In this document: positions 4,233 through 46,265 of the stretch, piece after piece | Layout: every line of letters begins with the position of its first letter | Numbering within the stretch: the stretch's first letter is position 1 | Assembly: GCA_930989535.1 (NCBI GenBank) | Contig: CAKNLK010000018.1 | Coordinates: forward strand, 1-49,653 | Direction: 5' to 3' | Source of the DNA: an uncultured Clostridia bacterium | GTDB lineage: Bacteria; Bacillota; Clostridia; Christensenellales; Borkfalkiaceae | DNA: 49,653 nucleotides | Notes under the pieces: model-generated | Databases searched by the model: none | What the model saw: the letters and a program-made list of their open reading frames with translations, nothing else | What the model was told of the DNA's origin: nothing | Translations under genes and position numbers: made by a program

Positions 4233-4588
4233 TCACGAAAAAAGTTTTAAGCAGATAAAACTTTTTTCCGTGAGATTGAGGATAACCCCACGGCACGCGG
4301 CTTTTGCCGCTGACCGTCGGAGTTTTCCTCGCCGCGCGATAATTAAGGGCACGCATATTACAAAATCGCGCGGCTTCACCTATCCTGCGAGAGCGCTTTC
4401 GCGCAAATGCAGGTGCGCTAACGCAAAAGCGTGGTTTTGCTTGCGCGAGTGATTATAAAATATAAAACCAAATTCTCACGGAAAATCGCAGCGCAGCGAG
4501 ATTTTCGTGAACAAGGCGGCGGAGCCGAGGCGGAAGCGAGCAATGCGCGATAGGGCATTGTGAGAAACCAGCCTCGTGCGTAGCCGCT
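4233..4588 (-). repeat. Structured intergenic repeat E1 (full, with 5' module B)
   Basis: Reading the minus strand as the element's H0-to-H4 direction, the copy contains module B (4475-4588), an AT-rich link, H0 near 4419-4445 with loop CCACG, H1 near 4381-4415, H2 with arms GCCGCGCGAT (4331-4340) and ATCGCGCGGC (4365-4374), H3 at 4278-4330, and H4 at 4233-4273 with loop containing a CTGCT sequence. Module B contains two hairpins, one with arms GCAAT/ATTGC and one with arms GAAAATC/GATTTTC, and recurs in copy E3 with about 90% identity by eye. It fills the gap between yqfD and phoH together with E2. No protein-coding gene is seen here. Confidence 0.9.
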
Positions 4589-4778
4589 AAAAGCGCCCTC
4601 AATTTGCCGCATACATACGGCTTTTGGGAAAAGGGTGAATTTTTTGCCATAAATATTATGTGTGCCCTTAAAAAGGCAAAAAAGAGGGGAAAACAGCCGA
4701 TAGGCGCTTGCGCCGTGCGGCGGTGTTCCCTTGAAATCGCAGAAATTCGCAGGCAACAGCTTGCCGAGAATTCCGCGA
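4589..4778 (+). repeat. Structured intergenic repeat E2 (lacks H0)
   Basis: This copy points opposite to E1 and abuts its module B. It begins at H1 (GCCG-CATACATA-CGGC), then the conserved AAGGGTGAA, H2 with arms TTTTTTGCC (4640-4648) and GGCAAAAAA (4675-4683), H3 with outer arms GAGGGGAA/TTCCCTT, and H4 with loop CAACAGCT. H4 ends 12 bases before the phoH start. Its H1-H2 part is almost identical to copy E8, while its H4 stem is of the E3/E10 type, so the hairpin modules appear to recombine. Confidence 0.88.
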
Positions 4779-4790
4779 GCGGAGTCTTTC

Positions 4791-5783
4791 ATGGAACAAA
4801 CGAAAATCATCATCGACGCGGGCAGCCTCGACGACATGCAGAAGCTGCTCGGCACATTCGACGAAAATCTGAATATCGTCTGCCGCGAACTCGGCGTTTC
4901 CGCCGCCGTGGAGGGCGTCAAGCTCAAAATTGCGGGCGGCGAGGAGGAAACCGCGCTCGCGGGGCGCGTGCTCGAGGGCATCCTCCGCCTCATCCGCGCG
5001 GGGGAAGCGGTGGACAAGTCTCGCATCGTCTACTGCATCGAGCTCGCGCGCGAGGGGAACCTCGGCGACATCGAGCAGGTCATGGGCGACGTGGTCGCCG
5101 TAACCTCCCGCGGCAAGCAAATCAAGTGTAAGACGGTGGGACAGAAGGCGTACGTCGACGCCATCAAAAAGAACACCGTCGTGTTCGGCGTGGGGCCTGC
5201 GGGCACGGGCAAAACCTACCTCGCGGTGTGCCTCGCCGTATCCGCCTTCAAGGGCAAGCAGGTGGAAAAGATCATCCTCACCCGCCCCGCGGTGGAGGCG
5301 GGCGAAAAGCTCGGGTTCCTGCCCGGCGACTTGCAGACGAAAGTAGACCCGTACCTGCGCCCGCTGTACGACGCGCTGCAGGAGATGTTCGGCATGGAAA
5401 ATTATCTCAAGCTCATGGAGCGGGGCGTCATCGAGGTGGCGCCGCTCGCGTACATGCGCGGCCGCACACTCTCCAACGCGTTCATCATCCTCGACGAGGC
5501 GCAGAACACCACCGTCGAACAGATGAAGATGTTTCTGACGCGCATGGGCGACGGCAGCAAGGTCGTCGTGACGGGCGACGTCACGCAAATCGATTTGCCC
5601 GAGGGCAAGCGCAGCGGCTTAAAGCACGCCGTTTCGGTGCTCAAGGGCATCGATGGGATTGAAACGGTCACGCTGACCGCGAAGGATGTGGTGCGCCATC
5701 CGCTCGTGATGCAGATTGTGCGCGCCTACGAGCGCGACGCCTCGCGCCGCGAAACTACCAGAGAGGAAAGGAAGAGAAGATGA
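4791..5783 (+). CDS. phoH: PhoH-family ATPase
   Basis: A 330-residue protein with Walker A GPAGTGKT at residues 135-142 and Walker B with DEAQN at about 231-239, plus the GDVTQIDLP motif, all diagnostic of PhoH/PhoL ATPases. The first 100 residues include the small N-terminal KH-like domain seen in PhoH-like proteins linked to RNA metabolism. I choose the ATG at 4791, with GGAG eight bases upstream; an in-frame extension upstream would run into the repeat. The stop overlaps pgpH by four bases. The phoH-pgpH-ybeY order is conserved in Firmicutes and suggests a role with the RNase YbeY in RNA turnover. Confidence 0.95.
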
Positions 5784-7276
5784 GATATTCCGACCCCGCC
5801 GACGTAAAAAAATTCGGCAAGCGCGAATGTGTGCGCAGCGTATTCGATTTTCTGTTCAATTATATCATCCTGCTCGCGCTCGTGGTGCTGTTTATCTGGC
5901 TCAACACGCTGCGCCTGCCCAGCGAAAATTTCTTTTCGTATATGTCGGAGCATTTCAATACGCTCGTGTACCTCATGGCGAGCGTGTTCCTGCTCTGCTT
6001 TACCATCTATTTTTATTACTTTTTCGAGGATAAAAGCGTTTTAGCCACCCAAAAGAGCATCTGGCTCATCTTTCTGATGCTCGACGTGAGCATCCTCATA
6101 TGCTACTTTTTCGGCTACTTTTTCAACATCTATTCCCGCCCGATTGCCGTGCTCGCGCTGCTCGCGCTCATGCTGTTGGGGCGGCGCGACGCCATCTTTT
6201 TGAACGTGATTTTCGCGCTCATGATGTTCGCAATCGACAATTTTTCCAACTTTTCCGAAATCAACGAGTACGTCAACGCGCTGCCCGGCACGCCGCTGAT
6301 GACCTTTTCCGCGGGCATGATTGCTATCTTCGTCGGGAACCAGGTGCAAACCCGCCTGCGCTCCTTCCTCACGGGCTTTGCCGTGTGCGCGCCCATCCTC
6401 TTGATGGTCGCCTGCCTCGAGTTCAACCGCGGCATCGAGATGGTGTATCTCCTGCTGTTCGGGCTGGAAGCGGGCATCTTGTCGGCGGTGTTCTTTATGG
6501 CGCTGCTGCCCGTGTTCGAGGCTGTTTTTAACTGCATCACCGACTATCGCCTGCGCGAGCTGACCGACCACGACGCGCCCCTCATGCGCGAGATGAAAGA
6601 CCGCGCGATGGGCACGTTCAACCACTCCATCGTCGTCGCGCACCTGGCGGAGGCTTGCGCCATCGCCCTCGACGAGGACACCGCGCTCGCCCGCGCCGCC
6701 GCGTACTACCACGATGTCGGCAAGCTGCGCCAGCCCGAATACTTTACCGAAAACCAGGCGGGCTACAACCCGCATAACGAGCTTTCGCCCGAGCTGTCGG
6801 TGGATATCATCCGTGCGCATGCAAAGGACGGGTACGATTTGATTCGCTCCAAGCACCTGCCGAAATTGTTGGCGGACGTGGCGCTGCAGCACCACGGCAC
6901 CATGCCCATCAAGTATTTCTACGCAAAAGCGCTGAAAATGACGGACGGCGAGCTGAACATTGAGGACTTTTCCTACCCCGGCCCCAAGCCGCAGACGAAG
7001 GTGGCGGCGATTATCATGATTTCGGACGCGAGCGAGGCGATCTCGCGAACGCTGCCCGACCGCTCGCCCGAAAAGGTGGAGAGCGCCGTGCGCGACGTCA
7101 TCGAGGAGCGCATGGATTTAGACCAGTTCGACGAGTGCGACATCACGATGAAGGATTTGACGGTCATCAAGGAGACCATCGTCAGCTGCCTGACGGGCGT
7201 GTACCACAGCCGCATCCAATACCCGAAAATCAAACTCAAACGAAAGGGAGAAACGGAGTCGAAGGGCGATGAATAA
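5780..7276 (+). CDS. pgpH: Membrane HD-domain cyclic-di-AMP phosphodiesterase (PgpH/YqfF type), short form
   Basis: A 498-residue protein with seven or eight membrane segments in residues 20-260 followed by a cytosolic HD domain: NHSIVVAHLAE, then YYHDVGK with His311-Asp312, then HAKDGYDL and LQHHGT. This is the 7TM-HD architecture of PgpH, which hydrolyses cyclic di-AMP. Typical PgpH proteins are about 700 residues because a large extracellular 7TMR-HDED domain follows the first membrane helix; here the first helix is followed almost at once by the second, so that sensory domain is missing. It overlaps both phoH and ybeY and so is translationally coupled to them. Confidence 0.88.
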   Translation: MRYSDPADVKKFGKRECVRSVFDFLFNYIILLALVVLFIWLNTLRLPSENFFSYMSEHFNTLVYLMASVFLLCFTIYFYYFFEDKSVLATQKSIWLIFLMLDVSILICYFFGYFFNIYSRPIAVLALLALMLLGRRDAIFLNVIFALMMFAIDNFSNFSEINEYVNALPGTPLMTFSAGMIAIFVGNQVQTRLRSFLTGFAVCAPILLMVACLEFNRGIEMVYLLLFGLEAGILSAVFFMALLPVFEAVFNCITDYRLRELTDHDAPLMREMKDRAMGTFNHSIVVAHLAEACAIALDEDTALARAAAYYHDVGKLRQPEYFTENQAGYNPHNELSPELSVDIIRAHAKDGYDLIRSKHLPKLLADVALQHHGTMPIKYFYAKALKMTDGELNIEDFSYPGPKPQTKVAAIIMISDASEAISRTLPDRSPEKVESAVRDVIEERMDLDQFDECDITMKDLTVIKETIVSCLTGVYHSRIQYPKIKLKRKGETESKGDE

Positions 7277-7742
7277 GCTGTTTATCGATTGCGAGGAAGA
7301 AAATTTTGACGTAGCGCCGCTCGAGGAGCACGGCGCGGACGGCGTAGAAGGGGATGTATCCCTTTCCGCCGAAATCGAGTTCGTGGACGGGGAGGAGATA
7401 CGCCGCCTCAACCGCGAAACGCGGAATAAGGACGCCGTTACCGACGTTTTAAGCTATCCGAGCCTGGACGGCATCCGCGGAAAGGCGCTGAATAAAGAGG
7501 ATTTCCCCTTTGATTTGGACGAGGAGGGACGGCTGTTTTTGGGCAGCATAGCCATCTGCCGCGAGCGGGCGGCGGAGCAGGCGGAGGAGTACGGACATTC
7601 GCTCAGGCGCGAGCTGTACTACCTCGCCGTACACGGGCTGTGCCATCTTTTGGGCTACGACCACGAAACGGAATCCGACCGCGCCGAAATGCGCGCGCGA
7701 GAGGAGACCGTTATGAATGCCATGGGCATTATGCGGGAATAG
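7269..7742 (+). CDS. ybeY: Endoribonuclease YbeY
   Basis: A 157-residue protein carrying the zinc-site motif HGLCHLLGYDHE, with His122, His126 and His132 as metal ligands, diagnostic of YbeY. It functions in 16S rRNA 3'-end maturation and 70S ribosome quality control. The N-terminal half has the family pattern NRETRNKDAVTDVLSYP. The ATG overlaps the end of pgpH by eight bases. In many relatives dgkA and cdd follow; here a structured repeat lies between ybeY and era, and a cdd-like gene is found at 43011. Confidence 0.95.
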   Translation: MNKLFIDCEEENFDVAPLEEHGADGVEGDVSLSAEIEFVDGEEIRRLNRETRNKDAVTDVLSYPSLDGIRGKALNKEDFPFDLDEEGRLFLGSIAICRERAAEQAEEYGHSLRRELYYLAVHGLCHLLGYDHETESDRAEMRAREETVMNAMGIMRE

Positions 7743-7747
7743 CCGTA

Positions 7748-8113
7748 TATGCGGCTGCGCACGAGTCTGGTTTCCCGCAATACCCTGTCGGGCATTGCTC
7801 GCTTCCGCCTCGGCTTCGCCGCCTTGTTCACGAAAATCTCACTTCGTTGCGATTTTCCGCGAGCCTGCGGTTTTATATTTAAAATAATTAAATGCGCGTG
7901 GCAAAACGACGCTTTTGCCTAAGCGCCCTCAATATGCCGCATACATACGGCTTTTGCAGGAAAGGTGAAGCCGCGGCTTTCAATAATATGTGTGCCTTTA
8001 AGGATGCCGCGGCGAGGAAATTCCGAACACCGCCCCGCTTAAAAGCGGGGCGTGTTGGGGTTTTCTTAAACTCACGGCGTTTCGCAGCCATCAGCTTGGC
8101 GAGAAACGCGTGA
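7748..8113 (+). repeat. Structured intergenic repeat E3 (full, with module B)
   Basis: The fullest plus-strand copy. Module B occupies about 7755-7858, then an AT-rich link, H0 (GGCAAAA / TTTTGCC), H1, the conserved AAAGGTGAA, H2 with arms GCCGCGGC at 7970-7977 and 8006-8013, a long H3 containing CCCCGC/GCGGGG, and H4 at 8072-8113 with loop CATCAGCT. No gene is visible in this 386-bp gap. H4 ends just before the AAAGGAGG ribosome site of era. Confidence 0.9.
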
Positions 8114-8128
8114 AGAAAGGAGGTTGTT

Positions 8129-9022
8129 ATGAAAGCAGGTTTCGTCGCCGTTATCGGCAAGGCGAACGCGGGCAAGAGTACGCTCGTCAATGTGCTCGTC
8201 GGCGAAAAGGTCGCCATCGTTTCCCCCAAGCCGCAGACCACGCGCGACCGTATTCTGGGGGTGTACAACGGCGAAAACGTGCAGATCGCCTTCGTCGATA
8301 CGCCCGGAATCTATAAATCCAAGACGGAACTTTCCGACCGCATGATGCGCACCGCCGAAAATTCCGCCAAGGACGTCGAGCTCATTCTGTATGTACACGA
8401 CGGGCACAAGGGCGTTGCCGATTCGGACGTCGATTTAATGAAGCATTACCAGTCCTTCGGCATCCCCATGCTCATCGCGTACACCAAGACGGACATCATG
8501 CCCGAATCGCAGATTCCCGAGGACGTCAAACGGCTGTTCGAGGAGGGGATTTCGTGCGACGTCGTACCCGTTTCGGCGCGCAAGGGCAAAAATATCGCCA
8601 AACTGCGGGATATCATCGCCGAAAAGCTGCCCGAGGGGGACAAGCTGTTCCCCGACGACGTGCTCTCCGACAAGAGCGAAAAATTCATGATCGCCGAAAT
8701 CATGCGCGAAAAGATTTTGCTGAAATACGACAAGGAGATACCCCACGGCGTGGCGATCCTCGTGAACACCTTCAAAAAGCGCGAGGACGGCAAGGTGTAC
8801 GACATCGACCTCGACATCATCTGCGAAAAATCGAACCACAAGGCAATAATCATCGGCAAGCAGGGGAGCGCGCTCAAAGAAACGCTCTCGTTCGCGCGCA
8901 AGAGTATGGAGGAGTTTTTGGGCTGCAAAGTGTTTCTAACGGCGTACGTCAAGGTCAAGGACGACTGGCGCGACAAGGCGAACCTCTTAAAGGAGTACGG
9001 CTACGAGGACATCGAGCGCTGA
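8129..9022 (+). CDS. era: GTPase Era
   Basis: A 297-residue protein with P-loop GKANAGKST near residue 10, the PQTTRDR switch region, DTPG, TKTD and SARKG, in the order of Era GTPases, followed by a C-terminal KH RNA-binding domain containing IIGKQGSALKE. Era binds the 16S rRNA 3' end during 30S assembly. TKTD stands in place of the more usual NKxD guanine-recognition motif, a common Era variant. The AAAGGAGG ribosome site is well placed. The neighbourhood with ybeY supports a ribosome-maturation cluster. A strong terminator follows. Confidence 0.97.
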   Translation: MKAGFVAVIGKANAGKSTLVNVLVGEKVAIVSPKPQTTRDRILGVYNGENVQIAFVDTPGIYKSKTELSDRMMRTAENSAKDVELILYVHDGHKGVADSDVDLMKHYQSFGIPMLIAYTKTDIMPESQIPEDVKRLFEEGISCDVVPVSARKGKNIAKLRDIIAEKLPEGDKLFPDDVLSDKSEKFMIAEIMREKILLKYDKEIPHGVAILVNTFKKREDGKVYDIDLDIICEKSNHKAIIIGKQGSALKETLSFARKSMEEFLGCKVFLTAYVKVKDDWRDKANLLKEYGYEDIER

Positions 9023-9061
9023 CTGCGCCGAAAAATTGATACGTATTTGAATAAATGCAAC

Positions 9062-9100
9062 AAAAAAGGGTTTTCGGAAGAATCCGAAAACCCTTTTTTT
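9062..9100. terminator. Bidirectional terminator between era and thiT
   Basis: A 14-bp or longer inverted repeat (aaagggttttcgga and its complement) flanked by A and T runs on both sides ends era on the plus strand and the thiT-like gene on the minus strand. Confidence 0.92.
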
Positions 9101-9118
9101 GTATGCCGCGCAGCGGCG

Positions 9119-10390
9119 TTATTCTGTTTTGGAAACATTCACGGCAACGTTGGTTTCGGCGTCTTCTTTACGCTCGACGGGCGTATTGCAGTAGGGGCAT
9201 TTTGTCACATCGCCGCTATAAGTGAATTTTGCGCCGCATTCGGAGCAGGTCGCAACATGTTCGTCCTCTTCCATGGGCGCGGCGGGCGTCGTAAATACGC
9301 GCAGGTTCTCCGCACGGCGTTCCATTTCGCGTACAAAGGTTTTCGACGAAAAGACGAGTACGCCGACCACGATTGCAATGGCGATGTCGGGCAGTACGTA
9401 ACCAGCTTGATAAATCAAACTATAAATCCATACAGGTTGACCTTCGGGGGCGTTTACGCCAAAGGCAAACATACCCGAAACAAAGTGCATCACAAATCTT
9501 CCGAGCCCGGCAACTATGGCGCCGACCGCGAAGCGAACTTGCGGGAATTTGAGCGTTTTATTATTCGCAAACATGCCAGCTAATCCGATTGCGGAAAATG
9601 CGAGGGGATAATCGAGCAAAAATTGTGCAGGGTGCAATATATAGGTATCTTGAAACGCCTGCAAAATACCGTAAATAAATCCTGCGAGTACACCTTTTTT
9701 CGTGCCGAACATATACGAATAGATCATCAGTGGCAGAAGGCTAGCGATCGTAATGGAGCCACCCTGCGGCATTTTGACAATGCGGAGATACGAAAGAGCA
9801 AAACTCATTGCTATGCATACAGCAGCAAAGGTGATAGAGCGTGTGGAAAATCCTTTTCTATCCTTCCTTCCGAGCAGGAATGCTACAACAACAACTGCCA
9901 CGGCGAGTAAAGCGGCGCCTACATACAAGCCGACTGTATTGACATCTTCATTGGTAAGCCAATTATTGTCAGCGGCATCTCCCGAGGCAAAATGGATTCC
10001 CATACATATAAGACTCGCGACAATTGCCGCGCCTGCAAGGCAGCCGATGACAATATAGGTGATCTTATCGCGGCGGAAAAATAGTGCCAAAGCACCGCCT
10101 GCTAGTACCAGAACCAGCGCAAGCAAGGGGTAGAACAGAATGGGCTCGATTCCGTCCTCAATAAACGAGAGAACGAGGAAAAGTACGCCGATGACGCAAG
10201 CATAGATGACTGCGCCGATGCCGTAATATTTCGCAAATTTTTTGCGCTTTTCGCCTTTGAAGGCGAAAAAGCAGGCGAGAAATACGATTACTGCGGCGAT
10301 TGTCAGCCAAATGGCGACGGAGCGCACAATGTTGGACGGCGTGTCGAACAAAATCGGGTACCACTCCGTTACCAAGAGGGAAAGAAACAT
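9119..10390 (-). CDS. thiT: ThiT-like thiamine transporter fused to an N-terminal membrane domain and a C-terminal zinc ribbon
   Basis: About 423 residues starting at an ATG behind AAAGGAGG. Residues about 1-180 form five hydrophobic segments of unknown type. Residues about 182-350 resemble ThiT, the thiamine-binding S component of ECF transporters (STRSITFAAVCIAMSFALSY, then GFIYGILQAFQD, then HPAQFLLDYPLAF). Residues about 385-407 form a CxxC-x13-CxxC zinc ribbon. ThiT alone is about 190 residues, so this is an enlarged fusion. The TPP riboswitch upstream directly supports a thiamine role. The ECF energising subunits are not in this window. The function of the two extra domains is unknown. 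Confidence 0.85.
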   Translation of the reverse strand: MFLSLLVTEWYPILFDTPSNIVRSVAIWLTIAAVIVFLACFFAFKGEKRKKFAKYYGIGAVIYACVIGVLFLVLSFIEDGIEPILFYPLLALVLVLAGGALALFFRRDKITYIVIGCLAGAAIVASLICMGIHFASGDAADNNWLTNEDVNTVGLYVGAALLAVAVVVVAFLLGRKDRKGFSTRSITFAAVCIAMSFALSYLRIVKMPQGGSITIASLLPLMIYSYMFGTKKGVLAGFIYGILQAFQDTYILHPAQFLLDYPLAFSAIGLAGMFANNKTLKFPQVRFAVGAIVAGLGRFVMHFVSGMFAFGVNAPEGQPVWIYSLIYQAGYVLPDIAIAIVVGVLVFSSKTFVREMERRAENLRVFTTPAAPMEEDEHVATCSECGAKFTYSGDVTKCPYCNTPVERKEDAETNVAVNVSKTE

Positions 10391-10429
10391 AAAAAACCTC
10401 CTTTGTTTTTCCCGCCGAAAACGTCGTAT

Positions 10430-10465
10430 CAAAAATATACGGCGCGCCCGCAATTTGGGCGCGCC
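10430..10465 (-). terminator. Riboswitch expression-platform terminator
   Basis: Read on the minus strand, GGCGCGCCC and GGGCGCGCC form a nine-bp stem followed by gtatattttt. It lies between the TPP aptamer and the gene start, as expected for thiamine-pyrophosphate-induced termination. Confidence 0.88.
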
Positions 10466-10480
10466 GAATCCTTCCTTGAT

Positions 10481-10556
10481 TACCTCCCGTTCAGGTATTA
10501 TCCTGTCCGGTTCAAAGGGTATGATCTCAGCTTTTTACAGCACCCCCGGCGGTTAT
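10481..10556 (-). ncRNA. TPP (thi-box) riboswitch aptamer
   Basis: The minus strand contains the TPP core in order: GGGGGTGC, GCTGAGATCATACCC, TTTGAACC, then a variable arm with GGATAATACC and a closing GGGAGG. The CTGAGA and GGATAAT segments contact the pyrimidine and pyrophosphate parts of TPP in the known family. It should repress the thiT-like gene when TPP is abundant. Repeat E4 starts 12 bp beyond its 5' end. Confidence 0.93.
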
Positions 10557-10568
10557 ATGAAATTATGT

Positions 10569-10805
10569 TCACACTTTTTGTTTTGAGCTGACAAAACAAA
10601 AAGTCGTGATTGTGATGACAACCCCGCGGCGCGCGGCTTTGCCGCTGACCACCGGAGTTTTCCTCTGCGGTGCGCTCTTTAGGGGCACACCATTTTTACG
10701 CGCACCGCATTCACCTTTCCTGCAAAAGCCGTAGGTGTGCGGCAAATGGAGTGCGCTTATCCAAAAGCGTTGTTTTGGAACGCGCAAATAAGTATTATAA
10801 AAATT
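10569..10805 (-). repeat. Structured intergenic repeat E4
   Basis: Minus-strand copy with H0 (CCAAAAC / TTTTGG), H1, AAAGGTGAA, H2 arms TGCGGTGCGC and GCGCACCGCA (10700-10709 and 10666-10675), H3 with GAGGAAAAC/GGTTGTCATC ends, and H4 at 10569-10609 with arms CTTTTTGTTTTG and loop TCAGCT. It lies between the TPP riboswitch and the promoter of the next gene. The H2 arms differ from those of E6 and E9 at positions that compensate in both arms. Confidence 0.9.
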
Positions 10806-10923
10806 CTTTATGCTCGCAGAAATTTGGGCGAGCGGCGGTTTTGCTTGCACAAACAGATTTTGGAAATAACTGCCCGTTCCGAAAACCAAAATAAATTATA
10901 GTATAAATTGTGCGGTTTGTCAA

Positions 10924-10952
10924 TTGATATAAACTGCTTTTTGTGGTACAAT
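10924..10952 (+). promoter_or_regulatory. Promoter of the YfbR-like gene
   Basis: TTGATA and TACAAT separated by 17 bp, 41 bp before the ATG. Confidence 0.82.
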
Positions 10953-10992
10953 AATTGCCGCGGGCGCTCTGCCCGCAGGGAGATAAGATACT

Positions 10993-11574
10993 ATGTTCAA
11001 TTTTTACGCCTTTTTAGACCGAATGAAATACATCAGGCGCTGGTCGCTCATGCGTTCCTCGCGCGAGGAAAATATCATGGAGCACTCCTGGCAGGTCGCG
11101 CTGTTCGCGCACGCCCTCGCCGTCATCGACACCGAAATCTGTCACAATTCGCCCGATATTTCCAAAACGGTGCTGTATGCGCTGTATCATGAGTGCAGCG
11201 AGGTGATGACGGGCGATCTGCCCACGCCCATCAAGTATTTCAACAGCGAGATACACGGCGCCTACAAACAGTTGGAAGATAGGGCGAGCGATAAACTTCT
11301 TCACATGCTCCCGCCCGAGCTGGAAGGGGCGCTTTCTCCCTTCGTCAAGGCGGACGCGGACAGTTACGAGTATAAACTCGTCAAGGCGGCAGACAAGCTC
11401 TCCGCCTACGTCAAGTGCCTGGAGGAGCAAAAGAGCGGCAACGCCGAGTTCAAAAAGGCGAAGGAGAGCATCGAAAACGAGCTGAAAGCGCGCAAACTTC
11501 CGTGCCTCGACTATTTTATGGAAAATTTTATTCCCGCGTTTCTGCTCACGCTCGACGAGATGGAAAATCTGTAA
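10993..11574 (+). CDS. YfbR-like HD-domain 5'-deoxynucleotidase
   Basis: A 193-residue protein of the HD superfamily. The metal ligands appear as EHSWQVA (His near residue 31), then YHECSEVMTGD with the HE(C)SE(x)xTGDLPTPIK signature typical of YfbR, and a later Asp in KAADKLSAYVKC. YfbR hydrolyses dNMPs to deoxynucleosides and so tunes nucleotide pools. GGGAG precedes the ATG. The gene has its own promoter and is followed seven bases after the stop by a short structured repeat. Confidence 0.88.
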   Translation: MFNFYAFLDRMKYIRRWSLMRSSREENIMEHSWQVALFAHALAVIDTEICHNSPDISKTVLYALYHECSEVMTGDLPTPIKYFNSEIHGAYKQLEDRASDKLLHMLPPELEGALSPFVKADADSYEYKLVKAADKLSAYVKCLEEQKSGNAEFKKAKESIENELKARKLPCLDYFMENFIPAFLLTLDEMENL

Positions 11575-11581
11575 AAGGGAA

Positions 11582-11690
11582 TTCACAAAATTTGTTTTAA
11601 GCTGTTAAAACAAATTTTCGTGATTGGAAAGACAACCCGCCGTTCGGTGTAGGCCGAGCGGCGGGTGTTTCTCTCTTGCGGCATTTATTA
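11582..11690 (-). repeat. Shortened structured repeat E5 (H4, H3, partial H2)
   Basis: H4 at 11582-11623 has arms AAAATTTGTTTTAA/TTAAAACAAATTTT and loop with CAGCT on the minus strand; H3 (CCCGCCGCTCGG and complement) follows. H1 and H0 are absent and H2 is reduced to GCGGC/GCCGC around an AT-rich loop that lacks the GTGTGCCC core. It sits between convergent genes and could end both transcripts. Confidence 0.78.
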
Positions 11691-11719
11691 TTATAAAACA
11701 AGCCGCTTTTGTATAAGGT

Positions 11720-13006
11720 TTATTTCGTCAGCTCGTAGATAGCGGCGGTGTAGATGTCGAGCAGTTTCTGTACGTTTTCGAGGGAGATATATTCGTCCTT
11801 TTGGTGAATCGTGGAGGGCTCGTTCGGGAACTGCGGGCCGAACCCCGCGCCGTTCTTCAATGCCCGCGCATAGGTGCCCCCGCCGATGGCGATTGCCTCC
11901 TCGCGCCGCCCCGTCTTTTCCGCGTACACCTTTTGCAGCGCCGCTATCAGGAATCCGTTCTTGTCGTTGTACAGCGGCTCCTGGCAGTGCAAAAGAACAT
12001 AGGGGGCTCCGAATGTATCCAAAACGGCGGTAACGTCCTCCCGTTTTTTGGTCGCAGGGTAGCGGATATCTACCGTTATCGAGAGGATTCCGTCCGCATA
12101 ATTCGCTATGTCGGGGGACATGGTCAGCCCGCCCGTTTCGTCTTTCATCTCTTTCAAGCCGAAAGAATCCTCGAACAGCAGGGCGTAAATCTGCGCGATG
12201 CGCTCGTCGAAGTTTGCAAAGTAGGCGAGCAGCTTGCCCAGCGCGTTTTCGCCCTCGCCGGGGGTGGAGGCGTGCGCCGCCCTGCCGCGGGCGGCGATTT
12301 TTCCGCTTTCCGATGCCACGCCGCATTTTTTTGCAACCGTTTCGTCAAAAGCGGCCCCTTCGGCAGCCGCATAGGCGCACACCATGTTGGGTCGCTCGCC
12401 GCCGTACAGGGCGGTAAACGGGGCGTTCGGCAGGGGGAAGTCCATGCGGAACTGCAAAATTCCCTTTTCGGCGTAGATGGCGGGGAAATCCGCGTCGGGC
12501 GAAAAGCCGATTTCGGGCATGTGTGCGACCTCATTGTAGTGGTCGATACACGCCCAGCCGTTCTCCTCGTTGCACCCGACGATGAGTTTGATTTTTCTGG
12601 AGGGGATAAAGCCCGCATCCTTGAGCGCCTTCATGCAGTAGAGGGCGATGACGGCGGGGCCCTTGTCGTCCATGGTGCCGCGGCCGTACAGCTTGCCGTC
12701 CGCAATTTCGCCGGCAAAGGGCGGGTGCGTCCAACCATCGCCCGCGGGAACTACGTCGAGGTGGGCGAGGACGGCAAACTCCTCCGCGCCGTCGCCGAAA
12801 ATTACTTCGCCGACGTAGTTGTCGTAGTTGCGCGTTGCAAAGCCCATATTTCGGGCGAGGTTTAAAAAGGCGCAGAGGCAGTCTGCCGCGCCCTTGCCGA
12901 AGGGCATGCCGGGCAGGGCGGGCGCCTGTGCGCTGTCAAATTTTACCATGTCCGCGATGCTTGTAACGCATGCGGAAAAATATTGCTTCGTGTCGATGTT
13001 TTTCAA
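11720..13006 (-). CDS. M20-family dipeptidase (Sapep/PepV type)
   Basis: A 428-residue zinc peptidase. HLDVVPAGDGW holds the first metal-ligand His and catalytic Asp, GRGTMDDKGP the bridging Asp, and CNEENGWACIDHY the catalytic and ligand Glu residues, in the order of Sapep/PepV dipeptidases, with an inserted lid domain before a final C-terminal HQ(K)DEYI segment. It likely hydrolyses dipeptides in the cytosol. The start is a TTG preceded by AGGTC; no better ATG is in frame nearby. The gene is convergent with the YfbR-like gene. Confidence 0.88.
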   Translation of the reverse strand: MKNIDTKQYFSACVTSIADMVKFDSAQAPALPGMPFGKGAADCLCAFLNLARNMGFATRNYDNYVGEVIFGDGAEEFAVLAHLDVVPAGDGWTHPPFAGEIADGKLYGRGTMDDKGPAVIALYCMKALKDAGFIPSRKIKLIVGCNEENGWACIDHYNEVAHMPEIGFSPDADFPAIYAEKGILQFRMDFPLPNAPFTALYGGERPNMVCAYAAAEGAAFDETVAKKCGVASESGKIAARGRAAHASTPGEGENALGKLLAYFANFDERIAQIYALLFEDSFGLKEMKDETGGLTMSPDIANYADGILSITVDIRYPATKKREDVTAVLDTFGAPYVLLHCQEPLYNDKNGFLIAALQKVYAEKTGRREEAIAIGGGTYARALKNGAGFGPQFPNEPSTIHQKDEYISLENVQKLLDIYTAAIYELTK

Positions 13007-13075
13007 ATGAGTGACCTGATTTTTGAATTTATTTTTGAATTTATTATTAAAATAATGTTGACGAAATTATTTGGA

Positions 13076-13150
13076 GAGATTTCTCGGCTGCGCGCGGCTT
13101 CGCCTTTTCACTCCGTTCGGCTTTCGCCGCGCTCCGCTCGAAATGACGGG
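13076..13150. repeat. Clostridia-type interspersed repeat, single copy
   Basis: The stretch from GAGATTTCTCGGCTGCGC to GCTCGAAATGACGGG has the look of the short inverted repeats scattered through many clostridial genomes (a GATTTCTCG...CTGCGCTCG-AATGAC pattern). It differs from the H0-H4 family and immediately precedes copy E6. An AT-rich patch with a 12-bp direct repeat lies before it. Confidence 0.5.
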
Positions 13151-13184
13151 AGGGGGTGCGAGATTCGCGAGCTCGCCGAGATTT

Positions 13185-13414
13185 TTGTGAGCGAAATACT
13201 TGCAAAAGGCAAAACCGCGTTTTTGCGCCAGCGCCCGCAATTTGCAAATACTTTTGCTTTTGCAGGAAAGGTGAATGCGGCGCGCATAGTATGGTGTGCC
13301 CTGAAAGGGCGCGCCGCAGAGGAAAACTCCGATTGTACCGAGCAAAGCGAGGACAATGGGGTTGTCCTCAAACTCACGAAATTTTCTTTTGTCAGCTCAA
13401 AAGAAAATTTGTGA
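13185..13414 (+). repeat. Structured intergenic repeat E6
   Basis: Plus-strand copy with H0 (GGCAAAA/TTTTTGC), H1 in which GCAA/TTGC replaces the usual GCCG/CGGC, AAAGGTGAA, H2 arms TGCGGCGCGC (13276-13285) and GCGCGCCGCA (13309-13318), H3 with GAGGAAAACTCC / GGGGTTGTCCTC, and H4 at 13374-13414 with arms AAATTTTCTTTTG and loop TCAGCT. H4 ends one base before the argF stop codon. With the preceding clostridial repeat it fills the gap between the peptidase and argF. Confidence 0.9.
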
Positions 13415-13415
13415 A

Positions 13416-14357
13416 CTATTTCGTCAGTAACGCCAGCACCGCCTTGTTGATGTGCAGGCGGTTTTCCGCCTGGTCGTACACGATGGACTGCGGCCCGTCG
13501 ATGACCTCCGCCGAAACTTCTTCGCCGCGGTGCGCGGGCATGCAGTGCATGAACACCGCGTCCTCCTTCGCGAGCGCCATCGTCTCTTTGGTGACGCGGT
13601 AGCGGGCAAGTATGCGCTTTTTTTCCTCGTCGTCTTCGTCGTTCATGGAGATAAATACGTCGGTATACACGATGTCCGCGCCGCGCACCGCCTCCGTCAC
13701 GTCGTCGGTGATGAGCACATTGCCGAACTGCATGCCGCGCTCGACCACGTCGCGTGCGGGGCTGTACCCGTGCGGGCTGTCGATGGCGATATCCATGTTC
13801 ACCTTCGAGCAGCCCATAATGAGGGAGTTGGCGATGTTGTTTCCGTCGCCGATGTAGGCGATTTTCAGCTTATCGAACCGCCCCTTGACTTCCCATATGG
13901 TGAAGAGGTCGGATAAAATTTGCAGGGGATGCGTCTCGTCGGAGATGCCGTTGATGACCGGAATCGAGCTGTAGCGGGCGAACTCGCTCACCTCGGCGTC
14001 CGTAAAGGCGCGCAGCACCACCGCGGAAAGCCCGTACCGCCCCAGCATGACGGCGGTGTCTTTGATGCTTTCGCCGCGCGAGAGCTGCGTTTCGTTTTTG
14101 GGCAGAAAGATGTAATCGCCGCCCAGCTGGCGGATGCCCATTTCAAAGGAGACGCGCGTGCGGGTGGACACGTTGCCGAACAGCAGGGCGATCGTCTTGT
14201 TTTTCAAAACGGGCGGGTGCTCGCCGACTTTGAACTTCTTTTTCATCGCTTTTGCCAGGTACAGGAGTTCGAAGATATCCTCGGTGGTCATGTCGGACAG
14301 GCGCAGCAGGTTGCCCTGCGAAATTTTATATTTGGGAGTATATTTATTGATATCCAT
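13416..14357 (-). CDS. argF: Ornithine carbamoyltransferase
   Basis: A 313-residue protein of the carbamoyltransferase family. STRTR at residues 64-68 binds carbamoyl phosphate, HPLQ at 143-146 takes the place of the common HPCQ/HPTQ, and HCMPAHRG at 271-278 replaces the HCLPAHR ornithine-site signature. The final VIDGPQSIVYDQAENRLHINKAVL-type segment is typical of OTCase and separates it from aspartate transcarbamoylase. It makes citrulline for arginine synthesis or acts in reverse in arginine breakdown. No other arg gene is nearby, so direction is not clear. AAGGAG precedes the ATG. Confidence 0.9.
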   Translation of the reverse strand: MDINKYTPKYKISQGNLLRLSDMTTEDIFELLYLAKAMKKKFKVGEHPPVLKNKTIALLFGNVSTRTRVSFEMGIRQLGGDYIFLPKNETQLSRGESIKDTAVMLGRYGLSAVVLRAFTDAEVSEFARYSSIPVINGISDETHPLQILSDLFTIWEVKGRFDKLKIAYIGDGNNIANSLIMGCSKVNMDIAIDSPHGYSPARDVVERGMQFGNVLITDDVTEAVRGADIVYTDVFISMNDEDDEEKKRILARYRVTKETMALAKEDAVFMHCMPAHRGEEVSAEVIDGPQSIVYDQAENRLHINKAVLALLTK

Positions 14358-18047: not shown

Positions 18048-18088
18048 AACTCAACTCTTTTGAGAGATTTTGCGCGAAGGGGGGTTCC

Positions 18089-19650: not shown

Positions 19651-19657
19651 TAGGTGT

Positions 19658-19848
19658 TCTCACTTTTTGTTTCGAGCTGACGAAACAAAAAGTCGAGATT
19701 TGAGGGGAAACCCGAGCGGTTTTCCCCTCGTTGTGCGATATATAGGGGCACACATATTATAAAATCGCGCAACTTCACCCCTTCTGTAAGCCATTCGGCA
19801 AATTGGGGGAAAAAGGCAAAAACGTGGTTTTGCCTTTTTCGAGTAATT
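19658..19848 (-). repeat. Structured intergenic repeat E7, abutting a start codon
   Basis: Minus-strand copy with H0 (AAAAAGGCAAAA/TTTTTGCCTTTTT), H1 (GCC/GGC), AAGGGGTGAA, H2 arms GTTGCGCGAT (19764-19773) and ATCGCACAAC (19730-19739), H3 with GAGGGGAAA/TTTCCCCTC, and H4 at 19658-19698. The one imperfect H2 pair would be G-U if the plus strand is transcribed but A-C otherwise. The AT-rich edge of the element touches the ATG of the PHP gene. Confidence 0.9.
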
Positions 19849-23872: not shown

Positions 23873-24049
23873 TTTCCGCACATATGTGTTGCAGTGCATA
23901 AAAAGCTGTTAAGGGCGCGAAATTGCGTTTTGTTTGAATCCGACCGACTGCGCGACGTTTTTTCGGCTGTGAATGGGGCTATTGCCCCATACCCTTCGGA
24001 GCCGACTTGCAAAACAGGGAAAGCGTACCTATGGCGGCTTGTGCTTTTA

Positions 24050-24356
24050 ATAATTTACTGCGCGTTTCAAAGCCGCGCCTTTGAAAAAGCGCACCCAGGT
24101 TGCCGCATACTTACGGCTTTCGAGGAAAGAGTGAATTTGCGCGATTTTAATAATTACTCGCGCAAGCAAAACCACGCTTTTGCGCAGCGCAACACAATTT
24201 GCCAATACTTTCTTTTGGGAAGAGGGTGAATTTTTTGCCATAAATACTATGTGTGCCCTTAAAAGGGCAAAAAAGAGGGAGAAACCGCCGTCTTGTCGGC
24301 AGGTTTCTCCCTTTCTCTCGAAAATTTGTTTTATCAGCTTAAAACAAATTTTGAGA
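24050..24356 (+). repeat. Structured intergenic repeat E8 with a duplicated H0-H1 head
   Basis: Two H0-H1 units follow one another (24060-24135 and about 24140-24230). The first ends in GAGTGAA and TTGCGCGA, which pairs with TCGCGCAA at the start of the second unit. The second continues into H2 with arms TTTTTTGCC (24231-24239) and GGCAAAAAA (24266-24274), H3 with GAGGGAGAAACC/GGTTTCTCCCTTTC, and H4 at 24316-24356 with loop ATCAGCTT. H4 ends seven bases before the gltA stop codon. Confidence 0.9.
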
Positions 24357-24363
24357 ATCACTT

Positions 24364-25764
24364 TTATTCCTCTTCCACCCTCTCCCCGATGGGAACGTAG
24401 GGCTTGCGCTTTGCCACCGCCTGGTAGCCGGGGCGGATGATTTTGCCGCCGTTGGTGATTTCCTCCATGCGGTGTGCCGACCAGCCCGCGATGCGCGCCA
24501 CCGCAAAGAAGGGGGTGTACAGTTCGCGCGGCAAGTCGAGCATGTCGTACACGAAGCCCGAATAGAAGTCTACGTTCGGCGCGACGCCCTTGTAGATGCG
24601 CCGCTTTTCCGCGATGACTTCCGCCGCCGCCTGCGCGACGTACTTGCGCATTTCGTATTCCTCTTCCATGTGCTTTTCGACGGCCAGCTTTTCCGCAAAC
24701 GTCTTTAAAATATCCGCGCGCGGGTCGGAGAGGGAATACACCGCGTGCCCCATGCCGTACACGAGCCCCGAATGGTCGTACGCTTCCTTGTCGACGATTT
24801 TCGCGACGAAATCTTTGAGCTTGCCCTTGTCGTAGTCGGGCACGTTTTCCTTGATGCAGTCGAACATTTCGCAGACCTTGATGTTCGCGCCGCCGTGCTT
24901 GGGGCCTTTCAGAGAGCCCAAAGACGCCGCCACCGACGAATAGGTATCGGTACCCGACGAGGTGACGACGTGCGTCGTGAACGTCGAGTTGTTGCCGCCG
25001 CCGTGCTCGGCGTGCAGAACGAGGCACTGGTCGAGCACCGTCGCTTCGAGGGCGGTGAACTTGCTGTCGTCGCGCAGCATGTGCAGGATATTTTCTGCGG
25101 TGGAGAGGTCCTTGCGCGGCTTGTGGATGAACAGCGACGCGTCCGAATTATAATAGCTGTACGCCTTTTGGCTGTAGACGGTGAGAAGCGGGAACTGCGC
25201 GATGAGCTGGAGCGACTGGCGCAGAACGTTCTTTTTCGAGGTGTCGTCCGGCCGCGGGTCGTAGGAGTAGAGGGAAAGCACGCAGCGGGCGAGCATATTC
25301 ATCATGTCGCGCGAGGGCGCCTTCATGATGATGTCGCGCACGAACGAGGGGGGCAGGGAGCGGAAATCCGCCAAAATTTCGCAGAAGCGGTCGAGCTGGC
25401 TCTGCGTGGGCAGGTGCCCGAACAGCAACAGGTGCGTCGCCTCCTCGAAGGCAAAGCGCCGCCCCTGCGCTCCCGCGACCAAATCGCGCACGTTGATGCC
25501 GCGGTAGTACAGCTCGCCCTCGACGGGGATTTTGTTACCGTTTTCGTCCTTGCCGAAGGCGATGATTTCGGAAATTTCGGTGAGTCCGCACACCACGCCG
25601 TTGCCGTTGATGTCGCGCAGCCCCCGCTTTACGTCGTATTTTTCGTATAACTTGGGGTTGATGATGTCGCTCTTGCTCGCGATTTTTGCAAGCTCCATGA
25701 TGTCCTGCGAATATTTTGAATATTTTTTCATGATATGTTCGCGGATTTCGGAATAGTGGTCCAT
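24364..25764 (-). CDS. gltA: Citrate synthase
   Basis: A 466-residue citrate synthase of the larger type found in anaerobes. LVLHAEHGGGNNSTFT and GSLKGPKHGGAN carry the active-site His residues, YGMGHAVYSLSDPRA the third, and VDFYSGFVYDML the catalytic Asp region. It condenses acetyl-CoA with oxaloacetate, the entry to glutamate synthesis through a partial TCA cycle in fermenters. AGGAGGG precedes the ATG. It is divergent from the hydrogenase operon with a shared regulatory gap, and ends at repeat E8. Confidence 0.95.
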   Translation of the reverse strand: MDHYSEIREHIMKKYSKYSQDIMELAKIASKSDIINPKLYEKYDVKRGLRDINGNGVVCGLTEISEIIAFGKDENGNKIPVEGELYYRGINVRDLVAGAQGRRFAFEEATHLLLFGHLPTQSQLDRFCEILADFRSLPPSFVRDIIMKAPSRDMMNMLARCVLSLYSYDPRPDDTSKKNVLRQSLQLIAQFPLLTVYSQKAYSYYNSDASLFIHKPRKDLSTAENILHMLRDDSKFTALEATVLDQCLVLHAEHGGGNNSTFTTHVVTSSGTDTYSSVAASLGSLKGPKHGGANIKVCEMFDCIKENVPDYDKGKLKDFVAKIVDKEAYDHSGLVYGMGHAVYSLSDPRADILKTFAEKLAVEKHMEEEYEMRKYVAQAAAEVIAEKRRIYKGVAPNVDFYSGFVYDMLDLPRELYTPFFAVARIAGWSAHRMEEITNGGKIIRPGYQAVAKRKPYVPIGERVEEE

Positions 25765-41441: not shown

Positions 41442-41449
41442 GTAGCTGT

Positions 41450-41715
41450 TCTCGACTTTTTCTTTTGAGCTGACAAAAGAAAAAGTCGAGATTTTGAGGG
41501 CTCCGCCCTCTGCGCCGCGCATTTTAAGCGCACACCAAAATACGCGCGGCGCATTCACCCGCTGAGGTCGCAAGTATGCGACGAATTGGGTGCGCTAATC
41601 CAAAAATGCGATTTTGGAACGCGCAAGCAATTATTATAAAAAATAAAACCGTACTTTTACGGAAAAATCGCAATATAACGAGATTGCCGTGAAGATGGCG
41701 GCAAAAGGATAATAG
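41450..41715 (-). repeat. Structured intergenic repeat E9
   Basis: Minus-strand copy: module B remnant (about 41655-41715), H0 (TCCAAAAT/TTTTTGGA), H1 with GTCGCA/TGCGAC in place of GCCG/CGGC, CAGCGGGTGAA, H2 arms TGCGCCGCGC (41544-41553) and GCGCGGCGCA (41511-41520) around a loop with GTGTGCGC instead of GTGTGCCC, a very short H3 (GAGGGCGGAGCCCTC) and a perfect H4 at 41450-41491. H4 starts eight bases after the CdaR stop. The malic enzyme leader lies inside its far end. Confidence 0.9.
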
Positions 41716-43400: not shown

Positions 43401-43466
43401 AAATGGTACGATACCGCCGTTGGGCGGCGGTTCGCGGCGATGTCCGCGGAATAAAACGGAGGCATT

Positions 43467-44882: not shown

Positions 44883-45003
44883 TGGCTGCATCTTGTGTGC
44901 GGCGCGGCGCATATGGTTTTGGGCGCATTTGAAGGATAGAACAGGGAGAAAACAAATGTTATTCGCCGCCGCGCATATGCAAGTGCAAAAAAATAGAAAA
45001 GGA

Positions 45004-45032
45004 TTGCATTTATATACAGTATATGCTATAAT
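45004..45032 (+). promoter_or_regulatory. Promoter of the AT-rich gene
   Basis: TTGCAT and TATAAT with 17-bp spacing, about 35 bp before the ATG. Confidence 0.82.
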
Positions 45033-45065
45033 AAAAATATCAATATTTAAGAGGGATATATAGAA

Positions 45066-45836
45066 ATGACAAGAATTCAAGCTGTGTTTGAAAAATTAAT
45101 AGAGCAGTCAATAGATATTTTTTCGATTCTGCAGATTTCCGAGTCGGAATATAATGATATTATAAAAGGGGCGAAAGAACTTTCTATAATGCAGGCCAAT
45201 CAATTAGTAAAAATAAGTAATATATCCCTTGATTTTCTTAGTAACGGGAAAGTGCAAACTTATTTTGATCAGCAAGTATTGAAGTATATAGAACAGAAGA
45301 AAAACGAATTAACTTTAAAGGAAAATAAATCAATTGTTTGTGCATTATTAAAGGATGCTGGATTTAATGATGTAGACGTTGATTTTATCAGTAATTCTTC
45401 AAACGACATAAAAATAAATGCCTATCTTTTATTGCGCCATGATAACGCAAAATTGTTCGAGTTTATTTCATCAAAATTTGTTATGGAAGAATATTCGTGC
45501 GGCGATTTTAATGGGGTATTAAACAGAGGGGGTAAAAATTCAGAGGGATATAAAGATTGGAATACTGTTAAAGATAAGTTAAGTAGTCTTATGGGATATT
45601 CATTATCAGACTATGGTTTTGTCTATTTTTGTACAAAAGATTATAACAATTTGATTGCAAAGTTTATAAATGGTGGAATAAATTGGAATTCAAAAGCAAT
45701 TCTTTATCTTATGGATTGTGGCGGGGTGATTACAACAATTGGTTATGATTATAAAACACACAGAGAAAGTGCTCTTGTGGATGTATTTCAGACAAAATTA
45801 TTGCGTGATTATTGTGAAAGGCATATTGATGAATAG
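45066..45836 (+). CDS. AT-rich gene with XRE-like N-terminus, unknown function
   Basis: A 256-residue soluble protein. The gene is visibly AT-rich (near one-third GC) against neighbours well above half, with codons such as AAA, AAT, TTA and ATA, which suggests recent acquisition. The first 60 residues (ESEYNDIIKGAKELSIMQAN, then VKISNISLDFLSNGK) resemble an XRE-type helix-turn-helix, but the match is loose. The remainder (residues 90-256) is unfamiliar. It has its own promoter and terminator and stands next to repeat E10, like a cargo gene. A regulator, antitoxin or defence component is possible; none is shown. Confidence 0.75.
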   Translation: MTRIQAVFEKLIEQSIDIFSILQISESEYNDIIKGAKELSIMQANQLVKISNISLDFLSNGKVQTYFDQQVLKYIEQKKNELTLKENKSIVCALLKDAGFNDVDVDFISNSSNDIKINAYLLLRHDNAKLFEFISSKFVMEEYSCGDFNGVLNRGGKNSEGYKDWNTVKDKLSSLMGYSLSDYGFVYFCTKDYNNLIAKFINGGINWNSKAILYLMDCGGVITTIGYDYKTHRESALVDVFQTKLLRDYCERHIDE

Positions 45837-45869
45837 ATTGTACAAAAATAATAATAAACTCCGAACGTT

Positions 45870-45902
45870 AAAAGGCGTACCGATGTCGGTGCGCCTTTTT
45901 CG
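45870..45902 (+). terminator. Terminator of the AT-rich gene
   Basis: AAAAGGCGTACCG-atgt-CGGTGCGCCTTTTT is a strong stem with one G-T pair, 33 bp after the stop; it merges into the start of repeat E10. Confidence 0.9.
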
Positions 45903-46265
45903 TTGGGTTTCCCCTCAAATCACGGCGTTTCGCAGGCAACAGCTTGCCGAGAAACGCGTGGGCATAACAATTATTTGCGCGCTTGAGAACCGCGTTTCTC
46001 AAAAAGCGCACTCAATTTGCCGCATACTTACGGCTTTTGCAGGAAAGGTGAATGCGGCGCGCGTAAAACAATCACTCGAAAAAGGCAAAACCACGTTTTT
46101 GCCTTTTTCACTCAATTTGCCGATACTTCGGCTTACGGAAAGGGTGAAACAGCGGCATAAAATAATATGAGTGCCACTAAAAATGCCGCTGTTAGGGGAA
46201 AGCCGCTCGGGTTTCCCCTCGAATCACGGCGTTTCGCAGGCAACAGCTTGCCGAGAAACGCGTGA
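45903..46265 (+). repeat. Structured intergenic repeat E10, composite array
   Basis: Order: end of an H3 and an H4 (45919-45960, CGTTTC...GAAACG with loop CAACAGCT), one H0-H1 unit (about 45980-46067), then a second complete H0-H1-H2-H3-H4. In the last, H2 arms are ACAGCGGCAT (46149-46158) and ATGCCGCTGT (46183-46192), H3 is GGGGAAA/TTTCCCC and H4 at 46224-46265 is virtually identical to the first H4. H4 ends four bases before the stop of the downstream minus-strand gene. Confidence 0.9.

What the first reader, a model, noticed from the sequence alone, without database searches (positions are those of the whole stretch)
4233..46265. Dispersed structured repeat family with compensating hairpins, at least ten copies in 50 kb
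Ten elements (4233-4588, 4589-4778, 7748-8113, 10569-10805, 11582-11690, 13185-13414, 19658-19848, 24050-24356, 41450-41715, 45903-46265), on both strands, share the order H0, H1, (A)AGGGTGAA, H2, H3, H4. Seen directly: the H2 arms differ completely between copies (GCCGCGCGAT, TGCGGTGCGC, TGCGCCGCGC, ACAGCGGCAT, TTTTTTGCC, GTTGCGCGAT) but each pairs with its own partner arm, while the H2 loop keeps a TAATATGTGTGCCCTTA-like sequence. H0, H1, H3 and H4 also change in both arms. Such covariation indicates selection on structure, in RNA or single-stranded DNA. I do not recognise the family as a known riboswitch, REP, group II or OMEGA RNA. Its density suggests hundreds of copies in the genome.
Basis: seen in the sequence. 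Interest (0 to 1): 0.95.

Follow-up and report, generated by a model that had tools for sequence, protein, structure and literature searches.

The report
Mosaic DNA hairpin repeats at genes
A gut Clostridia genome and its relatives carry a large, apparently undescribed family of hairpin-rich repeats parked at the edges of genes, whose hairpin arms change together in a way that points to DNA rather than RNA as the thing being kept foldable.

Summary
Covariance models from window copies find 11 strong H4 and 9 H2 hairpins in the window and about 130 of each in the 2.1-Mb genome. Rfam has no match in the window at gathering. Arms covary far beyond controls. Correction: one listed copy has only H3-H4 and some are composites.

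RNA selection is not supported: G.U and A.C cells are equally rare in H2 and H4 stems (20 and 23 of 3276), whereas tRNA stems of the same genome give 34 and 3 of 384. Arms seem kept complementary at DNA level.

The H4 end abuts genes: of 127 H4s, 58 end 0-9 nt from a stop codon and 25 end 5-27 nt from a start; about 2 each expected. Of 30 gene-edge H4s whose flank is held in a sister genome, 26 have an H4 there, but in 13 of 22 comparable pairs it is a different hairpin. Neither enzyme family tested (Y1 transposase, reverse transcriptase) tracks copy number.

Best reading: a new mosaic extragenic palindrome family, BIME/REPIN-like in kind, not a REP.

The parts
4232..4588 (-). Element 1: H4 4232-4275, H3, H2 4331-4383, H1, H0, 5' domain (about 4453-4588). 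H4 end 8 nt from the stop of the gene ending at 4223.
   Evidence: Model hits; gene calls; sequence
4589..4779 (+). Element 2, head-to-head with element 1; no complete H0; H1, GGGTGAA, H2 4631-4683, H3, H4 4735-4779; 11 nt before the start at 4791 (phoH-like gene, named by eye)
7748..8114 (+). Element 3 between ybeY-like (named by eye) and era genes: 5' domain, H0, H1, H2 7961-8013, H3, H4 8070-8114; fills nearly the whole gap 7743-8128; 14 nt before the era start
10568..10805 (-). Element 4: H4 10568-10611, H2 10666-10718, H1, H0; H4 end lies 10 nt upstream of a TPP riboswitch-like sequence
11582..11690 (-). Element 5: H4 11582-11625 and H3 only (5'-truncated); 7 nt after the stop at 11574
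13185..13415 (+). Element 6: H0, H1, H2 13267-13318, H3, H4 13372-13415; H4 end directly at the stop of the minus-strand gene 13416-14357
18053..18080 (+). Relic: 3' half of an H4 of the TCTCTTT-loop class, 5 nt after the stop at 18047; G017 holds a nest of elements of about 660 nt at the same place
19657..19848 (-). Element 7: H4 19657-19700, H3, H2 19730-19782, H1, H0; 6 nt after the stop at 19650
24045..24145 (+). Truncated copy (H0, H1, GAGTGAA, 5' arm of H2) running directly into the next copy (boundary approximate)
24146..24357 (+). Element 8: H0, H1, H2 24222-24274, H3, H4 24314-24357; 6 nt before the stop of the minus-strand gene 24364-25764
41449..41715 (-). Element 9: H4 41449-41493, short H3, H2 41511-41562, H1, H0, 5' domain; 7 nt after the stop at 41441
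45905..45962 (+). Fragment: part of H3 plus H4 45918-45962
45966..46068 (+). Truncated copy (H0, H1, GGTGAA, 5' arm of H2) cut in the H2 loop and followed by a new H0
46069..46266 (+). Element 10: H0, H1, H2 46140-46192, H3, H4 46222-46266; 3 nt before the stop of the minus-strand gene 46270-46764

Best explanation
This is a new family of mosaic, extragenic, palindromic DNA repeats. A full unit is an AT-rich 5' start (TATAATAAT-like), hairpins H0 and H1, an xGGGTGAA linker, hairpins H2, H3 and H4, often with a further 5' hairpin domain. Shown: loops and linkers are conserved while arms of H2 and H4 differ between copies and stay almost wholly Watson-Crick complementary; the H4 end abuts a gene edge; the 15 inverted neighbouring pairs all point H4 outwards; sites are shared between species while the copy at a site is often another family member. 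Seen by eye in the copies read: truncated copies run into the 5' start of a new copy, often at a hairpin loop, and other hairpin inserts sit inside elements. Inferred: the hairpins extrude in DNA; ectopic exchange or re-insertion among copies replaces modules at inherited sites; arm complementarity is restored at DNA level, by hairpin-templated repair or template switching, or by selection for a single-strand or cruciform substrate. At the gene edge the H4 hairpin probably works as BIME/REP hairpins are thought to (recalled), altering mRNA ends or translation termination. That functional step is untested here.
For: Arms covary: H2, 132 distinct rows, 95.0% of 1290 cells paired, 515 double-changed against 166.5 shuffled; H4, 117 distinct rows, 97.6% of 1986, 587 against 172.1; one-sided changes 8 cells in each (same calls). 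G.U as rare as A.C (20 and 23 of 3276), unlike tRNA (34 and 3 of 384; Fisher p 6e-21 for G.U). 53 distinct H2 and 72 distinct H4 5' arms among 133 rows each. Gene-edge anchoring: 58 of 127 H4s at 0-9 nt from a stop, 25 of 127 at 5-27 nt from a start against 2.0 and 2.2 expected for uniform placement of the 116 in closed gaps; same trend in G017 (23 and 10 of 53) and in other relatives (11 and 7 of 42). Neighbouring H4s within 800 nt: 15 outward, 12 tandem, 0 inward pairs. Orthologous sites: of 30 G000 gene-edge H4s whose 3' flank is held in G017, 26 have an H4 at the same place; the other way 24 of 28. In the 22 pairs at a gene edge in both genomes the H4s differ at 0-1 inner positions (9 pairs) or at 9-28 (13 pairs), nothing between. 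16 of 42 H4s of other relatives sit at a gene edge also occupied in G000.
Against: Nothing was seen moving; no exchange or conversion event was caught. Pair counts count sequences, not events, and alignments A7 and A8 were fitted to the structure. Without the gene-edge filter, 16 of 46 G000 and 14 of 43 G017 H4s with a matching flank had no H4 hit in the other genome; 12 and 10 of these are not at a gene edge, the match mostly running through a nested element. In L157 an H4 with an insert in its loop has two arms of different types, so mismatched arms do exist. In genus g24 none of 4 H4s lies within 30 nt of a called gene (one lies upstream of a tRNA). H4 has more G.U than A.C (10 and 3), H2 the reverse (10 and 20). 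Gene edges come from a small home-made gene finder, not a standard annotation.
Confidence: 0.55

Rival explanations
1. A still-active non-autonomous transposon, moved as folded single-strand DNA by an enzyme not recognised here, with a target preference for gene edges. Shared sites are then target hotspots hit repeatedly, and truncated copies are old insertions cut by new ones.
For: Copy number runs from 0 to 88 in 24 congeners and is 124 in the own genome in the same search; the family is patchy (66 of 301 genomes, 3 of 18 genera). H4 ends are closely placed at gene edges. Truncated copies run into the 5' start of a new copy. L018 holds a duplicated 5' piece of era beside an element. The own genome has four Y1 transposase matches.
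Against: Y1 transposase does not track copies: none found in G001, G003, G009 and G016 (58, 30, 57 and 28 copies), 5 and 3 matches in G002 and G005 with no copies (assemblies are incomplete). No H4 match in the four Y1 and five RT loci looked at; only one of the own genome's Y1 genes was among them. RVT_1 absent in 36 of 40 genomes including the own. Other transposase families were not tested. No terminal inverted repeats were noticed, without a systematic search.
Confidence: 0.27
2. A structured RNA: a small RNA transcribed from the TATAATAAT box through H4, or a UTR regulator, with compensatory evolution of the RNA.
For: Strong multi-hairpin fold and a -10-like box just before H0 in many copies; a possible AGGG/CCCT pseudoknot pairs in 83% of 36 cells.
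Against: G.U equals A.C and no clear shift with context: G.U and A.C on the stop side 8 and 12 in H2, 4 and 1 in H4; on the start side 2 and 7, 2 and 1. tRNA control differs sharply. Both orientations to genes. No Rfam match.
Confidence: 0.1
3. A by-product of mutation only: old palindromes kept perfect by template switching, tolerated at gene edges, with no function.
For: Template switching can create and maintain perfect stems and give multibase compensatory changes (PMC8794818, abstract); one-sided changes are very few.
Against: Does not by itself explain conserved loops, the 4-6 nt peak of spacing to stop codons, outward-only inverted pairs, or shared sites between species.
Confidence: 0.08

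Closest known systems
REPINs / REP sequences with RAYT transposases (PMC3116915, passages seen)
   Same: High-copy extragenic hairpins; [quoted passage not shown] inverted pairs
   Different: Unit here is about 200-370 nt with five or six hairpins; no GTAG/CGTC tag seen; no tie to a Y1 transposase found; one end placed at gene edges
BIMEs, mosaics of REPs in enterobacteria (recalled; named in the start of the abstract of PMC2817692)
   Same: Mosaic of palindromic modules between genes; inverted arrangements
   Different: Modules, loops and host group differ; much larger unit; arms vary far more (last point recalled)
BOX elements of Streptococcus pneumoniae and ERIC (recalled), enterobacterial RU-1/2/3 (start of the abstract of PMC2759123)
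   Same: Short intergenic repeats, 103-168 bp for the RU class; modular in BOX (recalled)
   Different: No sequence relation was tested; wholesale arm covariation is not known to me for them (recalled)
attC sites of integrons (recalled)
   Same: Structure kept while arm sequence varies; recognised as folded single-strand DNA; lie just after stop codons
   Different: Neighbouring genes here largely keep their order in relatives and are not cassettes; no integrase was looked for

Membership tests
REP/REPIN | Palindrome tagged by GTAG or CGTC at one end | tested here: not met
   H4 flanks are TCNC...GNGA with a CAGCT-like loop; no such tag among the invariant columns. Tag definition from passages of PMC3733652.
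REP/REPIN | Associated Y1 (RAYT) transposase in the genome, flanked by the repeats | tested here: not met
   Presence does not follow copy number; no H4 match in the four Y1 loci held, one of them from the own genome, which has four Y1 matches.
REP/REPIN | Hairpin kept by compensatory changes | tested here: met
BIME-like mosaic extragenic repeat (as a kind) | Intergenic mosaic of palindromic modules, more than 100 copies | tested here: met
MITE | Terminal inverted repeats and short target duplication, with a related full transposon | tested here: inconclusive
   None noticed at element ends, but no systematic search was made; no coding copy noticed among the stretches read.
Structured RNA family (Rfam) | Match to a known covariance model | tested here: not met
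   0 matches at gathering in the window; no relevant match at E up to 5 in 4200-13450
RNA-level structural selection | G.U wobble tolerated on one strand (G.U well above A.C) | tested here: not met
   20 against 23 of 3276; tRNA 34 against 3 of 384
Retroelement / group II intron derivative | Reverse transcriptase in the host genome | tested here: not met
   RVT_1 in 4 of 40 genus genomes, none in G000 (assemblies incomplete)
Integron attC site | Integron integrase and cassette array | not tested
   Integrase not searched

The most novel reading that the evidence does not exclude
A host-kept system of DNA boundary hairpins: the same gene edges carry an element across related species, H4 towards the gene, while the hairpins themselves are continually replaced from a shared pool and both arms are rewritten together at DNA level. 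That would be an inherited gene-edge architecture whose identity lies in foldability and position, not in sequence, and a natural test bed for template-switch upkeep of palindromes.
Probability: 0.2. Interest if true: 0.85.

Novelty: new variant of a known kind. Interest (0 to 1): 0.62.

Why it matters
Covariation is normally read as strong evidence of a functional RNA. Here a large family with textbook covariation fails the wobble test that the same genome's tRNAs pass, so it is a warning case and a way to separate RNA selection from DNA-level upkeep of palindromes. The tight spacing of the H4 end to stop and start codons, and sites shared by species whose copies have been swapped, make an old question directly testable: what extragenic palindromes do at gene ends and how their arms stay paired.

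Tried and rejected
Rejected: known Rfam RNA. Not supported as driver: Y1/RAYT transposase and reverse transcriptase; the second had been a serious idea because some copies are 5'-truncated while the 3' end is fixed. AGGG/CCCT pseudoknot between the linker and the H2 loop: 83% of cells paired, only one pair with changes on both sides; not counted as shown. A literature look for the REP effect on stop codons found nothing usable; what I say of REP hairpins near stop codons is recalled. The papers listed in my searches (titles and abstract starts) include none on such repeats in Borkfalkia or its relatives; passages were seen for PMC3116915, PMC3733652 and PMC5009743, and the abstract and start of the introduction for PMC8794818. 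H0 and H3 covariation was seen by eye, not counted; H1 only in a rough extraction that also caught other hairpins (124 of 126). The third model allowed was not built.

Rows dropped: the pair counts merge identical rows (133 to 132 for H2, 133 to 117 for H4). Model R1 used nine of ten window H4s (the 41449 copy left out). The H4 context counts used 127 of the 133 G000 hits: left out were L104:1000 plus (echo of L104:1001 minus), L132:1562 (39.7 bits, 111 nt long) and four at 36.0-38.6 bits (L180:865, L120:763, L147:1550, L179:872). For G017 53 of the 66 hits were used: left out were two in L204 (same DNA as L021) and eleven at 29.7-36.3 bits, echoes included. For other relatives the 42 hits at 43 bits or more were used of 70, plus 4 of genus g24; the 42 come from genus members and from five era-locus records (L002, L003, L016, L026, L028).
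Full report
What was checked. The window is contig C18 of an unnamed 2.12-Mb assembly of 36 contigs. Its Era protein is closest to uncultured Clostridia or Firmicutes and Candidatus Borkfalkia records, and two genus members in the searches, G012 and G055, have contigs of the same lengths as records named Ca. Borkfalkia avistercoris and stercoripullorum, so the genus is most likely Borkfalkia (inference). I folded the ten listed stretches, aligned H2 and H4 and built two models, R1 for H4 and R2 for GGGTGAA plus H2.

Observation. In the window R1 finds 11 strong H4s (E up to 2e-10; four weaker hits are echoes or the 5' domain hairpin) and R2 nine H2s. The nine H2 stems pair in 95.6% of 90 cells, with 37 double-changed cells against 11.6 after shuffling and none with a one-sided change. 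One copy folds as single-strand DNA at z = -7.35.

Copy number and range. Whole-genome searches list 140 H4 and 129 H2 matches at E up to 1, with only 150 candidates scored in each. In the window and the stretches then fetched, 133 of each pass (at E 0.01, at E 1e-6). Of 24 congeners besides the own genome, 22 have at least one H2 at E 0.01, from 1 to 88 copies, and none of 16 genomes of other families of the order has any. A wider draw found H2 in 66 of 301 genomes of the family, in 3 of 18 genera, at E 1e-5 with at most 19 candidates scored per genome; 8 of the 40 genus members drawn there had none, though two of these 8 (G004, G006) had one weaker match. Four copies read from another genus keep the same order of hairpins and linkers.

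DNA, not RNA. Over the genome H2 shows 515 double-changed cells among 1290 (166.5 shuffled) and H4 587 among 1986 (172.1 shuffled); slid controls fall to 24-60% paired. In RNA helices G.U pairs are tolerated and A.C are not, on the strand that functions. Here G.U and A.C are 20 and 23 of 3276 cells, with no clear shift between elements facing a stop and those facing a start. In 32 distinct tRNA sequences from loci of the same genome, acceptor and T stems give 34 G.U and 3 A.C of 384 cells (Fisher p 6e-21 for G.U). The reason for near-perfect arms stays open: selection for a folded single strand or cruciform, or arm-templated correction. Template switching is a published way to make multibase compensatory changes (PMC8794818, abstract).

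Gene edges. With a small codon-usage gene finder 85 of 127 H4s in G000 face a stop codon, 58 of them at 0-9 nt with a peak at 4-6, and 38 face a start, 25 of them at 5-27 nt, where a ribosome-binding site would begin; 4 had no gene in reach. Uniform placement in the same gaps would give about 2.0 and 2.2 (for the 116 H4s in closed gaps). G017 repeats it: 23 of 53 and 10 of 53; other relatives 11 of 42 and 7 of 42. Where neighbouring H4s lie within 800 nt, 15 pairs point outwards, 12 are tandem and none point inwards. The dnaK-dnaJ gap (genes named by eye from the sequence) has an outward pair in G000 (L133) and in G023 (L228); in G003 (L088) the dnaK edge is seen.

Sites stay, copies change. 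Matched stretches of G017 and G000 differ by about 4-21%. Of 127 G000 H4s, 46 have a matching 3' flank in the G017 DNA held and 30 of these have an H4 at the same place; the other way 43 of 53 and 29. Kept to H4s at a gene edge, it is 26 of 30 and 24 of 28. The four G000 gene-edge misses are, by my reading, places where G017 holds an H4 interrupted by an insert, an H4 of another loop class (two cases), or a truncated element. In 22 pairs that lie at a gene edge in both genomes, 9 H4s differ at 0-1 of about 39 inner positions and 13 at 9-28 (ungapped comparison, so one pair that shares its outer stem, L093/L202, scores high). At window 19657 H4, H3 and the H2 loop are almost unchanged while the outer H2 stem differs in both arms. 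Of 42 H4s from further relatives, 16 sit at an edge that also carries one in G000, 12 distinct edges; at roughly 4,000 gene ends per genome (47 genes in 49.6 kb) and 127 H4s, chance would give about 3% each.

Breaks and inserts, read by eye. Truncated copies run straight into the AATAATYACTCG-like start of a new copy, with the cut often in the H0 or H2 loop. A relic of half an H4 in the window faces a nest of elements in G017. Three other hairpin sequences sit inside elements: about 150 nt in the H2 loop, about 70 nt in the H4 loop before CAGCT, and about 85 nt in an H4 arm (L108) or an H0 loop (L207). In L157 the H4 split by such an insert has arms of two types.

Mechanism. Shown are the fold, the symmetric wobble counts, the anchoring, the outward pairs and the different copies at shared sites. 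Inferred are exchange among copies, DNA-level repair of arms and a role at gene ends. Neither enzyme family tested explains the spread, and only two were tested, in incomplete assemblies. The family is best filed as a new variant of mosaic extragenic palindromic repeats; it works like BIMEs and REPINs in several respects but fails the REP tag and RAYT tests. The recount strengthened the shared-site point; I left the odds as they were.

Noticed in passing
window 10468-10557, minus: TPP riboswitch-like sequence (50 bits, gathering 54.3) directly downstream of element 4; the same edge carries an H4 in L002 and L003.
   Followed up: partly
L018 about 1194-1480: A 5' piece of era followed by an element and then a further era start: a duplication around an insertion.
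   Followed up: no
L101, L109, L122, L132, L137, L190, L206, L229: A well-conserved hairpin insert of about 150 nt, in these loci at the 3' side of the H2 loop.
   Followed up: partly
L157 and L192; L108 and L207: Two other small hairpin inserts, the first in H4 loops, the second in an H4 arm or an H0 loop; the second ends in GCGTTAG, which recalls an attC core site (recalled, not tested).
   Followed up: no
window 13068-13150; L021 about 9150-9240; L113; L212: Another dispersed palindromic repeat (TTTCTCGGCTGCGC...CGAAATGAC-like) beside some elements.
   Followed up: no
genome G000, contigs C1, C6, C9, C11: Contigs with few or no listed elements, while C7 and C10 carry 31 H2 and H4 hits each: a strongly uneven spread.
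   Followed up: no
window 1-117: 39-nt tandem direct repeat, three copies.
   Followed up: no
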